Positions 32,433 through 39,077 of a stretch of DNA of 64,000 nt are shown here, piece by piece; positions within the stretch are counted from its first letter, which is position 1; each line of letters opens with the position of its first letter. Source of the DNA: Petrachloros mirabilis ULC683 (GTDB lineage Bacteria; Cyanobacteriota; Cyanobacteriia; Thermosynechococcales; Thermosynechococcaceae); assembly GCF_009939295.1 (NCBI RefSeq), contig NZ_WVIC01000005.1, positions 62,001 to 126,000 on the forward strand, read 5' to 3'. Position numbers and translations under genes: made by a program. Under the pieces are notes generated by a model that was given only the letters and a program-made list of their open reading frames with translations, did not search any database and was not told the DNA's origin.

Positions 32433-32627
32433 ATGAATTACGTAGAGAATATAAGGTGTCCCAATTGTGGTAGTTATGGCGAACGTCATCACCTTCTTGA
32501 CTGCAACCTAGTCCGAACCCAGTGTCCCGAATGTGACTATCTGATGGTGACCTGCGGCGTCACAGGCAAGGTGGTTGAAGCCTATGCCCCTGGCCTTTCC
32601 TTGGAGCACTTTATTTGTCGCGTCTAG
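32433..32627 (+). CDS. Small zinc-ribbon protein (cyanobacterial, often mislabelled as PriA)
   Basis: A 64-residue protein with two Cys pairs, RCPNCGS (about residues 8-14) and QCPECDY (about 30-36), spaced as in a treble-clef/zinc ribbon, then LMVTC and VVEAYAPG. This small family is conserved in cyanobacteria; its members are sometimes annotated as PriA helicase from a local match to PriA zinc motifs, which is not justified at this length. Likely a nucleic-acid- or protein-binding zinc protein; function unknown. Confidence 0.8.
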   Translation: MNYVENIRCPNCGSYGERHHLLDCNLVRTQCPECDYLMVTCGVTGKVVEAYAPGLSLEHFICRV

Positions 32628-32687: not shown

Positions 32688-33347
32688 TAGCTTGGGTGCC
32701 TCACCTTTCCGTAGCCCTCACCTAAATCTGGTTCCCCTTGTATCTTAAGACTACAGAGATAGACCGTGACTCCTTAGATGCTAGACATCGTGGAGAAGCT
32801 TCTCCCAAAAGGGGCTAGGGTGTAAACATAAGTCTGAGAGAAAAACGATTTCACCCTGCATTCGCCCCCTACATCCCCCATTCTGGGGGACTGTGAGATA
32901 TTCAGAACCCCCCAAATTGGGATTGAGCCGAGATACGTGTAAAAAGTGATCATATCTCGCTCAAAACCCTGCCATGTCTACTCTTCCGGCTTGTTACCTT
33001 CAAGACTCGGCATTGTTAAAAATGTTCGAAAGAGAGTTTACAGCCTGTTCCAAATAAACTCGTCTATAAAGAGGCTCTTAAAGCATTACCTGATCCGGAA
33101 TAGCCCACAAGTATTTGCTTAGCTAAACTTAACAGATCTATGGGAACAAGTCTGCCAACTAACTTAAGAAAGTTACAAATCAGAAGATAAAAGCTTATTT
33201 TTTAGTTGTTCCGCTAAATAAACTTTATTTGGTAGATTTAGCTAGCTATTTGCTTAATTTACTTGCGATGGATAGCTGCTAATTATGGAGTTGCTTCTAA
33301 AATGACATTAAAGCAGAAAAGACTTATGACTATCAGCAAGGCTTCTC
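32688..33347. other. Gene-free AT-rich gap with GC-run repeat debris
   Basis: About 660 bases with no supported gene. From 32850 to 32930 there are runs of the cyanobacterial MITE type: CCCCCATTCTGGGGG (32876-32890) and CCCCCCAAATTGGG (32908-32921). GAGATA...TATCTC (about 32931-32956) forms an imperfect hairpin. The rest (33000-33340) is AT-rich and must contain the promoter of the exported-protein pair that follows. Confidence 0.4.
32908..32921 (+). repeat. 14-bp repeat, left copy (CCCCCCAAATTGGG)
   Basis: An exact inverted copy occurs at 36564-36577. Together they bracket the AT-rich accessory stretch with the unknown exported proteins and the transposase remnants. The sequence type (GC runs around AATT) is common in cyanobacterial MITEs, so the match may be two MITE remnants rather than ends of one element. 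Confidence 0.5.
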
Positions 33348-34178
33348 ATGAATTCTAGATATTACTTCTTCTTGGGTATTCCAGCCGTGTTCTTGGGCGT
33401 GTTAGCTGCTTTTGGTAGCATATCACTCAAAGCTCAGACTCAAATATCTAACCCTCCGTCTCTACCACAAACACTAACCCCTTCCGTCTCTTTTCAAATA
33501 GAAAATATTCCATCACCTGCAGAGAGGATTAATCAGTGGTCGCAGAATAATTCAGGGGAACCCATGCCAGCCAGCATTGCCTTCGAGCGGCCTACACCTG
33601 ATCCTCAAGTTCTTCAACTTATGCGACGTTATAACTTAAAGCCAGAAGCTATCTTTATGGCAGCTGCTGGCATGATTGGCACACACGACGTTACTGAAGG
33701 TCAAGACGCGGCGAGTGCTGTCGCGGCAGCCCGTCAGAAAACCATCCAAATGATGCAAGAAGACCTAGATAGTGTTCCACAAAGATTCAAGGACTTTATA
33801 GAAAATCATCCAAAACAGGAAATTGTAGAGCCATCTAGCGAAGATACTGAACAAGCCCTAGCGAGATCATTATTAGAAGGTATTGAAAAATCAGAGGTTA
33901 CGCTTTCTAGAGCTAGAGGTGGGCAGCCTCTGATTACTGGTGTAAAGGTGACTGGTAGCGTTGATGATCTTAAGAAGCTAGCTAATGATCCTAAAGTCAA
34001 GGAGTTTGAGCCTGGAATAGTGATTAATGGTAATGTTTTTGTCCCAACACCAACAGCCCAACCCTACCAATCTCAAACTTCTCAAGATATTGCCGACCGT
34101 GTTCAAGTTATTAAAGGATTAAGTGCAGATGAAATATATACCCGTATCCAAAATCGTTCTATAAGGAGCAATCCTTAA
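33348..34178 (+). CDS. Exported or membrane-anchored hypothetical protein
   Basis: A 276-residue protein of no family I recognise. The N-terminus (FFLGIPAVFLGVLAAFGSIS, about residues 7-26) is a signal peptide or anchor, so most of the chain is outside the cytoplasm. Then come a Pro/Ser-rich linker (32-60), a helical region (LMRRYNLKPEAIFMAAAGM; SAVAAARQKTIQMMQEDL, about 91-140) and a compact alpha/beta-like piece (ITGVKVTGSVDDLKKLANDP, about 196-215), reminiscent of small inhibitor-type or propeptide folds. No cysteines are present. It is followed after 3 bases by another exported protein. Base composition is AT-rich relative to the window. Confidence 0.65.
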   Translation: MNSRYYFFLGIPAVFLGVLAAFGSISLKAQTQISNPPSLPQTLTPSVSFQIENIPSPAERINQWSQNNSGEPMPASIAFERPTPDPQVLQLMRRYNLKPEAIFMAAAGMIGTHDVTEGQDAASAVAAARQKTIQMMQEDLDSVPQRFKDFIENHPKQEIVEPSSEDTEQALARSLLEGIEKSEVTLSRARGGQPLITGVKVTGSVDDLKKLANDPKVKEFEPGIVINGNVFVPTPTAQPYQSQTSQDIADRVQVIKGLSADEIYTRIQNRSIRSNP

Positions 34179-34181
34179 CAA

Positions 34182-34772
34182 ATGAGAGATTTCACACACC
34201 TTTTCGCAGGGGCAGCTCTAAGCCTATCGTCATTTCTGATTCTTTTTGCTTCTCCTGTTTTTGGTAGCCATCGTCCAGATGTCACACGTTTTCCTAACGA
34301 AGGTAATCTCACTTACAATGGTGCCTCCTCTGCACAAGCATACTTCTACTGGCATAAAGTAGGTGGCTGGCGGGGACAAAACGTTAGACCCGGCATTGAA
34401 TTTGACATAGCTCTAGAAAATGCAAAGTTTTTTGAGTCATGTACAAGCTGGTCAGATTTACCTTATAAAAACTATAGCGATTGTGGGACCGCAGGAGCCT
34501 CTGAGCCAGAAGGAGGTAAGAATTTTGGTATTGGTACATACGATGCTAAGAACATTCAGAACTACCGTTGGTACCGGGGGCAATGGTCTTTCAGTGGCGG
34601 CTCAGGTTCTTCTTCCTTTGCAAGGTTAACTTGGCAAGAGGTTGATCATAATCTTTGCCCTTTTGATTATCCATGGTGTATGGGAGGGATCCCGGGTGAT
34701 GGAAATGCTGGGGTTTTAAGAAGCGGCACTTTTGTTAGAGGACAAAGCTTCTACCAAAGATATTACTTCTAG
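34182..34772 (+). CDS. Exported hypothetical protein with four cysteines
   Basis: A 196-residue protein with a clear signal peptide (LFAGAALSLSSFLILFASPVFG, probable cleavage near residue 28). The mature part is rich in aromatic residues and glycine and has four cysteines (about 87, 101, 159, 166), which could form two disulfides. It ends in aromatic residues (FYQRYYF), a C-terminal pattern also seen in outer-membrane-targeted beta proteins. No family recognised. AAGGAG lies about 15 bases upstream, inside the end of the preceding gene, so the two are probably translationally coupled. Confidence 0.65.
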   Translation: MRDFTHLFAGAALSLSSFLILFASPVFGSHRPDVTRFPNEGNLTYNGASSAQAYFYWHKVGGWRGQNVRPGIEFDIALENAKFFESCTSWSDLPYKNYSDCGTAGASEPEGGKNFGIGTYDAKNIQNYRWYRGQWSFSGGSGSSSFARLTWQEVDHNLCPFDYPWCMGGIPGDGNAGVLRSGTFVRGQSFYQRYYF

Positions 34773-34885: not shown

Positions 34886-35116
34886 TTAGTCCGTTTGTTT
34901 TCTTCTGGCAAGGTGCAATCCAATGCCCAGAATAAGAGTAATAGCAGTTGCATTGGCTGCTAAAGCCAATGTCAAAGACTTGTTTTGAGCCGCCAATGTA
35001 ATTGCTTGCTCTACAAGATGGTCAGGATTGTGGTATGCGTAAGCTTTCTGAGGAGCCAACAAATAGCTTGAAAGAACAACGGAAATAATAAGATTTAGGG
35101 AAAGGATGAACTTCAT
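34886..35116 (-). CDS. Small exported protein with C-terminal membrane helix
   Basis: A 76-residue protein, convergent with the previous pair. It has a signal peptide (FILSLNLIISVVLSSYLLAP, probable cleavage after AYA near residue 27), then a short hydrophilic segment (HNPDHLVEQAITLAAQNKS), a hydrophobic helix (ATAITLILGIGLHLA, about 56-70) and a basic end (RRKQTD). This signal-linker-helix-basic order resembles a sorting-signal layout, but no sortase-type motif is visible. Function unknown. It is AT-rich like its neighbours. Confidence 0.55.
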   Translation of the reverse strand: MKFILSLNLIISVVLSSYLLAPQKAYAYHNPDHLVEQAITLAAQNKSLTLALAANATAITLILGIGLHLARRKQTD

Positions 35117-35333
35117 GGCTCTTTTGATAAATATAATACTTATTAAAACTTCTGGAGTTTTCAGATTTTAAGCTTTAAAAAGCTAAGGATTTGACTATTT
35201 TTGTTATACTTCTTTTTGCCACCTCTGATCAATCAAGTCAACCATTATCTTTACTCTAACTGAGAATACCTTTGAAGGATAGACTCAAAGTAAGTTCAAG
35301 ATAGCAGATAATGAACTGGCAAGCCTTCTGTGT

Positions 35334-35963
35334 CTAACTTCCGATAATTCCAAATGGCAAAGAAATGGCCCCTTCAAATGGTTGAGGGACTGTTTCCAGG
35401 TCCACAACGTACTCCCCATAGCGCTTCAAATGACGGGTGATGTAGGGGCTCAGGGTTGACAGAGCCTCCCGGTCAATGGGGTATCCTTGGGCACTTAGCG
35501 CTTGCACCGCTAAGGATATATCCACTGCATTCTGGAAAATGACCGCACTGGCAACCAGATCTAGATACTTCAACCACTTCTCCTGATCCTCGGGGTCATT
35601 CTCGGTGATCACCCCCTCCTTTCCAAAAAACAGCCAATCCAGAAAGCGGTGAAAGTCTTCGACAATATTGGTGCAGGCCGTGATCTGCTGCCGGCTTGCG
35701 GGCTCTGAGATGTACTTCAGGAGAAACAGGGTTCGCCCTACCCGTCCTAGCTCCTGGAGAGCCTGGTAGAGGCGGTTCTTGGCACTGTAGCTGTTCAATT
35801 TCCGCAGCAGGGTGGAGGGCATCAACTTACCGGCCTTAATCGAGAGCACCACCCGCATCAGATCCTGCCAGTGGGTCTGGAGCAGCTTCCAGTCCACCAC
35901 GTCTTTGAACAGGGGGTCGAGGTACTCGTAAACTGCCCAAACCCTGCTGGAAACCTTAAGCAT
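35334..35963 (-). pseudogene. Tn3-family transposase, C-terminal fragment
   Basis: A 209-residue open frame matching the C-terminal part of Tn3-family transposases: SRVWAVYEYLDPLFKDVVDW at the start, HWQDLMRVVLSIKAGKL, LQELGRVGRTLFLLKYI (about 87-103), then AVIFQNAVDISLAVQALSAQGYP and LSPYITRHLKRYGEYV. A full transposase is about 1000 residues, so only the last fifth remains. The upstream part is cut at about 35945, where sequence of a second, unrelated transposase begins on the other strand. Cannot be active. Confidence 0.85.
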
Positions 35964-36553
35964 CCAGGGAGCCTGCTTAAGTCTGGATGCGTTACATACT
36001 CAAAAAAACACTTGAGCAGATAATCTCCAGTGGCAATAATTACCTGGTTGCAGTCAAAGCAAATCAGCCCAAGCTATTCAATGAGATTGCACGACAGTTT
36101 GAGCAAGCCCCGATACTCAGTGTTCAAACTGAGACTGAAAAAACCAGAACTCGTCAAACCCAGCGAAGCGTCATGATCATCAACACCGTTGAGGGCATTG
36201 ACTCAGACTGGGTTGGGGTGGAGCGATTCATCCGAGTGCAGCGCTCTGATACTAGGGATAATGAGCCCTATGACCAAACCGTGTTTTACATGAGTTCTTT
36301 AAGCTTCGATGCAGGAGGGTTTGCTGAATATATTCGAGCCCATTGGCAGATTGAGAATTGCCTGCATTGACCCAAAGATTTTGTTTTTAAGGAGGATACC
36401 GCTGCTGTGTGCGATGGATATGCCCCTATCAACTTTTCTATTGTGCGAACGATTGCCATAAATTTATTTCGTCATCATGGATTCACCTCTATCACCAAAG
36501 GGCTCAGACAGCTTGCTCACGATATCCCTCATCTTTTTTCCTTTTTTAAATAA
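35944..36553 (+). pseudogene. ISAs1-family transposase remnant with a frameshift and a nonsense codon
   Basis: C-terminal part of an ISAs1-type DDE transposase. From about 35944 one frame reads LLETLSIQGACLSLDALHTQK. In the run of seven As at 36002-36008 the reading must shift to continue as TLEQIISSGNNYLVAVKANQ, up to the catalytic-Glu motif YIRAHWQIENCLH. There a TGA (36368-36370) replaces the Trp codon expected after LH. The frame then continues with KDFVFKEDTAAVCDG and IVRTIAINLFRHHGF to a natural stop at 36551-36553. Two independent disablements plus loss of the 5' half make it a dead copy. Confidence 0.85.
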
Positions 36554-36563
36554 ACCAGCCCTG

Positions 36564-36577
36564 CCCAAATTGGGGGG
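36564..36577 (-). repeat. 14-bp repeat, right copy (CCCAAATTGGGGGG)
   Basis: Exact reverse complement of 32908-32921. It begins 10 bases after the stop of the ISAs1 remnant and may be part of that element's end or of a neighbouring MITE. Confidence 0.5.
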
Positions 36578-36602
36578 TGAGGACAACAGAGACCCAAGAG
36601 CA

Positions 36603-39077
36603 TTAGGATTCTGAGCCTTGGGGTAGCAGCTCCCGTCGTTCACTGGGAAGCACCTTTACTTTCCCTTCCTCATTGACATCGACAACGGTTTTATCGCCAG
36701 CCTTAACTCGTCCAGTCAGAATCTCTTCCGCCAGACTATCTTCAAGGAGGCGCATAATGGCACGCCGTAAAGGACGAGCCCCGTAGCTGGGGTTATACCC
36801 CTCTTCTACTAGGCGATCCTTGAAGCGCTCGGTGACTTCCAAGGTGATCTCTTTTTCGGCCAATCGGTCAAACACTTCCTTGAGCAAGATATCGGCAATA
36901 TCTTTGACCTCGTCCTTGGTGAGCTGCCGGAAGACAATGATTTCATCTAGGCGGTTCAAGAACTCGGGTCGGAAGTACTGCTTCAATTCTTCGTTGACCA
37001 AGGAGCGGATGCGATTGTACTGGTTGTCCGCCTCGGTGCCACCGTCAAAGTCAAAGCCAAGGCCACCCCCACCTTTCTCGATCACCTTCGAGCCAATGTT
37101 GGAGGTCATAATCAGCAGGGTGTTCTTGAAATCAACGGTTCGACCCTTAGCATCGGTGAGCCGCCCGTCTTCTAAAATTTGCAGCAGCAAATTGAAGACA
37201 TCTGGGTGGGCTTTTTCAATTTCGTCAAAGAGTACCACGGTGTAAGGTCGGCGACGAACGGCTTCTGTGAGCTGGCCACCTTCGTTATAGCCTACGTATC
37301 CCGGTGGAGACCCAATCAGCTTCGACACGGTGTGTCGCTCCATATACTCCGACATATCCAGGCGAATCATGGCCTCTTCAGAACCAAAGAAGTAAGCTGC
37401 CAGAGCTTTGGTCAGCTCGGTTTTGCCGACCCCCGTTGGCCCGGAGAAGATGAAGCTCGCAATGGGGCGATTGGGATTTTTTAGTCCCACCCGCGCTCGA
37501 CGGATAGCCCGAGAGATGGCTTTGACGGCTTCGTCTTGACCAATCAACCGCTGGTGCAGGGTTTCTTCCATGTGCATCAGCCGCTCCGACTCAGATTCGG
37601 TGAGCTTGCTGACCGGAACCCCAGTCCAGGAGGCAACGATGCCCGCAATATCTTCTTCAGTGACGACGGGTGAGTCATCGACGTTGCTAGACTCAGATTT
37701 TTTGTTCTGGGCAATCGCTTTGATCTCGGCTTTGATTTCCATTTCGCGATCGCGCAGTCCCCCCGCCTTGTCAAAGTCTTGGGCGCGCACAGCATCATCT
37801 TTCTCTTTAAGAACCTGACGCAATTCTTTATCGAGTTCCTTGGCTGCTGGTGGCAGTTGGGAGTTAATCAGCCGCACCCGAGACCCTGCCTCATCCATCA
37901 GATCGATGGCTTTATCTGGCATGTAGCGATCGGAAATATAGCGATCTGAGAGCTTGGCGGCAGCTTCTAGGGCTTCGTCTAAGATCTTGAGCTTGTGGTG
38001 TTTCTCATAGCGCTCGCGGAGGCCATAGAGAATTTCGATGGTTTCGGCTACCGAGGGTTCGCCCACCATCACCGGCTGGAACCGACGCTCTAAGGCGGCG
38101 TCTCGCTCGATATGTTTGCGGTATTCATCCAGGGTGGTGGCTCCAATGCACTGGAGTTCCCCCCGAGCTAGAGCCGGTTTCAGGATATTAGCAGCATCGA
38201 TGGCACCTTCAGCGGCACCTGCTCCAATCAAGGTATGAACTTCGTCGATCACCAGCACCACGTTTGAGGCTTGGCGAATTTCATCCATGATTTTTTTGAG
38301 GCGCTCTTCAAATTCACCTCGGTACTTAGTGCCCGCAACCAACAAGCCGATGTCAAGGGTGACGACCCGCTTTTCTTGCAAAATGTCGGGAATATCCCCG
38401 TTGGCAATGCGCTGCGCTAGGCCTTCTGCGATCGCAGTTTTACCCACGCCCGGCTCACCAATCAACACGGGATTGTTTTTAGTGCGGCGACCCAGAATTT
38501 GAATCACCCGCTCGATTTCTTTTTGGCGACCCACCACCGGATCCAGTTTGCCTTCAGTGGCCATTTGGGTCAGATTTGCCCCAAATTCATCTAGAGTCGG
38601 GGTTTTGGTGCGTCCTTGACTGCCCCCAGCCGAGACCTCAGCGGTTTCACCCAGCATCCGAATCACTTGGGTGCGAACTTTGGAGAGATCAACCCCGAGA
38701 TTTTCCAGAACACGGGCAGCAACCCCTTCCCCTTCTCGGATAAGCCCCAAGAGCAGGTGCTCAGTGCCAATATAGTTGTGACCCAGTTGACGGGCTTCTT
38801 CCAGGGATAACTCTAGAACTCGCTTAGCGCGTGGGGTAAACGGAATTTCCACAGCAACAAAGCCAGAGCCTCGACCGATAATTTTTTCCACCTCAACACG
38901 GGCATCTTTAAGATTGACCCCCATGGATTTGAGAACCTTGGCCGCGACGCCCGTACCCTCTCCTATCAGACCCAAAAGGATCTGCTCTGTGCCGACAAAG
39001 TTGTGACCCAAGCGTCGGGCTTCTTCTTGGGCCAGCATAATCACCTTGATGGCTTTTTCTGTGAAGCGTTCAAACAT
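36603..39077 (-). CDS. clpC: ClpC ATPase
   Basis: An 824-residue Hsp100/AAA+ unfoldase that feeds proteins to ClpP/ClpR. It has two N-terminal Clp repeats ([20 protein letters not shown] and [20 protein letters not shown]), AAA1 with [13 protein letters not shown] (about residue 210), a short UVR-containing middle region ([19 protein letters not shown]) and AAA2 with [12 protein letters not shown] (about 548) and [24 protein letters not shown]. The short middle region and the UVR motif identify ClpC rather than ClpB. It is essential in many cyanobacteria. rimI lies upstream on the same strand, 185 bases away. Confidence 0.96.

What the first reader, a model, noticed from the sequence alone, without database searches (positions are those of the whole stretch)
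33348..34772. Unrecognised exported two-protein unit in an AT-rich island
Two genes with signal peptides, 3 bases apart: a cysteine-free helical/linker protein with an inhibitor-like alpha/beta piece (ITGVKVTGSVDDLKKLANDP) and an aromatic, four-cysteine protein ending in aromatic residues. A secreted effector with its periplasmic partner or chaperone is one reading. The neighbourhood has transposase remnants, so lateral acquisition is plausible. This is the best candidate for an undescribed system in the window.
Basis: partly seen in the sequence, partly recalled or inferred. Interest (0 to 1): 0.6.

Follow-up and report, generated by a model that had tools for sequence, protein, structure and literature searches.

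The report
Orphan exported gene pair, transposon-flanked
Two adjacent genes of a cyanobacterium, each with an export signal, are real but have no detectable relatives in any collection searched; they sit in a small AT-rich patch littered with broken transposons, so they look like a lineage-restricted acquired pair whose job cannot be read from sequence.

Summary
The anatomy is confirmed. Two open frames lie at 33348-34178 (276 aa, no cysteine) and 34182-34772 (196 aa, four cysteines, 18.5% aromatic), 3 bases apart, each with an N-terminal hydrophobic export segment. Both show strong period-3 coding signal (9.5 and 4.7; 99% of shuffles under 3). No family, solved structure, plasmid or phage record matches. 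No convincing relative turned up in about 390 genomes of the class, about 385 of the phylum, or two collection scans, while a diverged secreted control protein was found in 20 of 24 relatives. Co-occurrence therefore cannot be tested. Single-sequence structure models are worthless (pLDDT 34 and 40). Insertion is supported: in two relatives of other genera the flanking zinc-ribbon gene and clpC are neighbours 160-180 bp apart; here 4 kb separates them, holding the pair, a Tn3-family inverted-repeat end newly found at 32920-32945, a small membrane protein gene, and Tn3 and ISAs1 transposase fragments. The inhibitor-like piece has no statistical support; effector plus chaperone is untested. Best reading: an acquired or fast-diverged two-gene operon making two Sec-exported proteins, perhaps a periplasmic helical partner for a disulfide-bonded beta-rich surface protein. 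Modest interest.

The parts
33348..34178 (+). P1: 276-aa exported or signal-anchored, acidic (mature pI about 5.0), cysteine-free protein; mostly helix, with a beta-alpha-beta-like piece at residues 199-231 (low-confidence model)
34182..34772 (+). P2: 196-aa exported protein, four cysteines, aromatic and glycine rich, probably beta (inference)
34163..34168 (+). AAGGAG ribosome-binding-like motif for P2 inside the end of P1 (13 nt before the ATG, longer than ideal)
   Evidence: sequence
34886..35116 (-). P3: 76-aa small protein with signal peptide and C-terminal membrane helix, convergent to P2; has distant cyanobacterial relatives that lie elsewhere without P1/P2; probably not part of the unit
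32920..32945 (+). Outer end of a Tn3-family terminal inverted repeat, pointing toward P1
   Evidence: E 2.4e-7 in the window with a model of 17 repeats from cyanobacterial Tn3 elements
32946..32968 (-). Degenerate inverted copy of the same repeat, making a palindrome with it (possible internally deleted element)
   Evidence: fold z-score -4.2
35334..35963 (-). C-terminal fragment of a Tn3-family transposase (pseudogene)
35987..36563 (+). ISAs1-family transposase fragment with probable right end CAGCCCTG
   Evidence: the end motif is from general knowledge
32799..32921 (+). About 120-bp interspersed repeat with dozens of copies in this genome, abutting the Tn3 end
32433..32627 (+). Zinc-ribbon small protein gene, left border of the insert; next to clpC in two relatives
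36603..39077 (-). clpC, right border of the insert

Best explanation
P1 and P2 form a lineage-restricted two-gene operon, brought in with (or lodged among) mobile elements between a zinc-ribbon gene and clpC of a cyanobacterium. Shown: both frames are coding, they run in one direction 3 bases apart, they lack detectable relatives, and the 4-kb segment is absent between the same neighbours in two relatives. Inferred: both proteins leave the cytoplasm by the Sec route; P2 folds as a disulfide-stabilised, aromatic beta-rich protein at the surface or outside the cell; P1, an acidic helical protein, stays in the periplasm or membrane and assists or regulates P2. Direct pairing of the two proteins is a guess from gene order alone.
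For: Coding signal and ORF length; hydrophobic N-termini and four cysteines only in P2; no terminator-like site on the + strand in the region; composition unlike the neighbours; zinc-ribbon and clpC adjacent in relatives from two other genera, with gaps of 176 and 159 bp against 3,975 bp here; Tn3 end, Tn3 fragment and ISAs1 fragment around the pair; absence from relatives despite a working control.
Against: No homolog, so neither conservation nor co-occurrence supports a joint function. The neighbour P3 has cyanobacterial relatives, so not everything in the segment is foreign. No promoter-like site was found on the + strand (the scan is crude). The structure models carry no information. Most relatives show neither arrangement at clpC (8 of 10 loci lacked the zinc-ribbon gene nearby), so the inserted state is inferred from two genomes.
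Confidence: 0.4

Rival explanations
1. Two unrelated orphan genes that merely landed side by side; each is exported but they do not act together.
For: Only gene order links them; no shared sequence and no co-occurrence evidence exists. Segments rich in mobile-element debris collect unrelated genes.
Against: Same strand, 3-base gap, P2 ribosome site inside P1, both with export segments: typical of a co-translated operon.
Confidence: 0.3
2. Secreted effector (P2) with a periplasmic chaperone, inhibitor or immunity partner (P1); a toxin-immunity or protease-inhibitor-like pair.
For: Exported pair, four cysteines in the second protein, a beta-alpha-beta-like piece in the first, mobile-element setting.
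Against: No match to any toxin, immunity, inhibitor or defence model; the beta-alpha-beta piece gives no significant match. No secretion-system gene was recognised in the open frames read at 28-41 kb.
Confidence: 0.12
3. Native, fast-evolving genes of this genus (not acquired): secreted proteins diverged beyond recognition in a poorly sampled lineage.
For: No other genome of the genus was among those searched; secreted proteins diverge fast; P3 next door has only 28%-identical relatives in the class.
Against: Composition differs clearly from neighbours; the segment is missing at the same place in two relatives of the same family; transposon remnants on both sides.
Confidence: 0.18

Closest known systems
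ORFan genes in recently acquired integrative-element regions (Genome Biol 2009, PMC2718499, abstract only)
   Same: No homologs, atypical composition, next to transposon remnants in a small insert between core genes
   Different: No integrase or intact element boundary enclosing the pair could be shown here
Cyanobacterial Tn3-family elements with a tyrosine recombinase (plasmid examples L071, L073, L078)
   Same: Terminal repeat sequence and transposase C-terminus match
   Different: In intact elements the transposase ends a few tens of bases from the repeat; here the pair lies between one relic end and the transposase fragment, 2.4 kb apart, and probably outside any single element
Tn3-like mobile insertion cassettes of Xanthomonas (PMC6304161 and related papers; title/abstract and general knowledge)
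   Same: Passenger genes beside Tn3-type ends without an intact transposase
   Different: No second inward-facing terminal repeat found on the far side of the pair

Membership tests
   No I9 match in Pfam for the whole protein or the fragment, even at E 10
Sigma factor regulator C-terminal (PF13791) | Score at or above the gathering cut-off of 25 bits | tested here: not met
   13.7-15.0 bits, E 0.03-0.08
Anti-phage defence or phage protein | Match to PADLOC or PHROGs models | tested here: not met
Cargo of a Tn3-family element or mobile insertion cassette | Inward-facing terminal repeats on both sides of the genes | tested here: not met
   Only the left end at 32920-32945 is significant; no right partner; a degenerate repeat beside the transposase would face away from the pair and is not significant
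Cargo of a Tn3-family element or mobile insertion cassette | Target-site duplication | tested here: inconclusive
   AAATT occurs left of the repeat and again at 36567-36571, but the right end is lost and the palindromic repeat makes this a likely coincidence
Effector-immunity or effector-chaperone pair | Co-occurrence of the two genes across genomes | not testable with these tools
   No homolog of either gene found
Sec-exported proteins | Cleavable signal peptide | tested here: inconclusive
   Hydrophobic N-terminal segments and plausible cleavage motifs; no predictor or experiment available

The most novel reading that the evidence does not exclude
P1 and P2 are a previously undescribed family of paired exported proteins (a surface or secreted beta-rich protein with a dedicated periplasmic partner) spread by mobile elements among poorly sampled bacteria.
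Probability: 0.12. Interest if true: 0.5.

Novelty: new member of a known kind. Interest (0 to 1): 0.22.

Why it matters
If the pair acts together it would be a new exported protein system in cyanobacteria, and a concrete case of how orphan secreted genes settle among transposon debris next to core genes. As it stands it is one more orphan pair in a mobile-element segment, a common kind of thing.

Tried and rejected
Weak matches to P1 (L002, L003, L004, E 0.0007-0.008; L082, E 0.004) and P2 (L006, L063, E 0.006-0.009) rejected as chance: L002 and L004 were read and hold unrelated frames with no P2-like neighbour; L003 and L082 carry internal stops; the L006 match lies in a short spurious frame; L063 lies in a 4754-aa frame. 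PDB matches of the P1 fragment to designed PPR proteins and cytochrome b562 rejected: summed repeat scores or short helices with no individual significance. Tested whether the pair is inside a Tn3 element: first the left end at 32920 suggested it, then the inverted copy beside it and the position of the transposase argued that the pair lies between two relics instead. A split terminal repeat (outer half at 32920, inner half near 35297) was considered, but alignment of the right part was not clearly better than shuffles. Structure search was not run because the models are meaningless. No way was found to reach genomes of other phyla beyond the fixed collections.

Full report
Observation. The two frames are exactly as described: P1 33348-34178 (276 aa) and P2 34182-34772 (196 aa) on the + strand, separated by CAA. 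They are genes and not chance frames: shuffled versions of the region reach 196 stop-free codons once in 2000 trials and never 276. The period-3 signal is 9.5 for P1 and 4.7 for P2, against 4.7-5.9 for segments of folC and clpC and 0.6-0.8 for nearby intergenic DNA. Codon usage fits the host poorly: in-frame scores are below those of the flanking core genes, and for P2 barely above other frames, consistent with foreign or relaxed composition. P1 has no cysteine and an acidic mature part; P2 has four cysteines and 18.5% aromatic residues. Each has a single hydrophobic segment, at the N-terminus.

Known families. Neither protein matches Pfam, NCBIfam, PHROGs or PADLOC. PDB sequence searches give only insignificant matches for the whole proteins, and the lowest E-value for the P1 fragment (0.003) is a sum over repeats with no significant single stretch. 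Single-sequence AlphaFold models have mean pLDDT 34 and 40 and say nothing about the fold.

Relatives elsewhere. P1 was sought in 58 relatives, 390 genomes of the class and 382 of the phylum, P2 in 390 of the class, 29 of the order and 386 of the phylum. Both were sought in GTDB and IMG/VR contigs and in plasmids, P2 also in phages, up to E 10. Only the window's own copy is convincing. As a control, a diverged secreted CAP-domain protein from the same window was found in 20 of 24 genomes, down to 25-27% identity, so the searches have power. The class and phylum draws overlap, the GTDB and IMG/VR scans reach close relatives only, and metagenome contigs could not be searched, so relatives may exist outside the sampled sets.

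Setting. In relatives G006 and G003, of two other genera of the family, the zinc-ribbon gene (window 32433-32627) lies 176 and 159 bp from clpC, convergent with it. In the window 3,975 bp separate them. The other eight relatives examined show no zinc-ribbon gene near clpC. The insert holds, left to right: a copy of a roughly 120-bp repeat that occurs dozens of times in this genome; a Tn3-type terminal repeat end at 32920-32945, E 2.4e-7 with a model built from 17 repeats of cyanobacterial Tn3 elements, followed by a degenerate inverted copy (fold z -4.2); P1; P2; P3; a C-terminal Tn3 transposase fragment; and an ISAs1 fragment. In intact elements the transposase ends a few tens of bases from its repeat. 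Here the pair lies between a relic end and the transposase fragment, and no second inward-facing end encloses it. So mobile elements surround the pair, but it cannot be called the cargo of one defined element.

P3. The small convergent gene at 34886-35116 has the same signal-peptide plus membrane-helix layout as 78-89-aa proteins in another cyanobacterial genus (28% identity, shared LLAP...A.A.H..P.H and helix), which lie next to the amidotransferase gene gatA without P1 or P2 (gatA named from its sequence by general knowledge). P3 is thus probably a separate gene, and the segment is a patchwork.

Mechanism. The best-supported statement is limited: a co-oriented, probably co-translated pair of Sec-exported proteins, restricted to this lineage. 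That P2 is a disulfide-stabilised surface or extracellular protein and P1 its periplasmic partner is inference from composition and gene order. Confidence is 0.4 for the whole and higher (about 0.75) for 'acquired or rapidly diverged exported gene pair' without the partnership. An effector-chaperone or effector-immunity role is possible but has no evidence.

Verdict. Interest is modest because ORFans beside mobile elements are common (PMC2718499, from its abstract) and nothing found here makes a function testable from sequence alone.

Noticed in passing
window 32799-32921: A roughly 120-bp repeat with CCCCCATTCTGGGGG and CCCCCCAAATTG motifs occurs about 40 times in this genome at 87-97% identity, several copies sharing a fixed extension GAAGTTTTGTCAGTCAACCAG: probably an abundant non-autonomous element.
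   Followed up: partly
window 32920-32968: Two Tn3-type terminal repeats head to head within 49 bp, the only copy of this repeat in the genome: possibly an internally deleted Tn3 relic.
   Followed up: partly
window 34886-35116: Small signal-peptide plus membrane-helix protein with distant relatives in one other cyanobacterial genus and in no protein library.
   Followed up: partly
window 36564-36578: CCCAAATTGGGGGGT, an inverted partner of the repeat end at 32907-32921, lies just beyond the ISAs1 fragment; the whole insert is bracketed by these 15-nt inverted ends (possibly coincidence).
   Followed up: no
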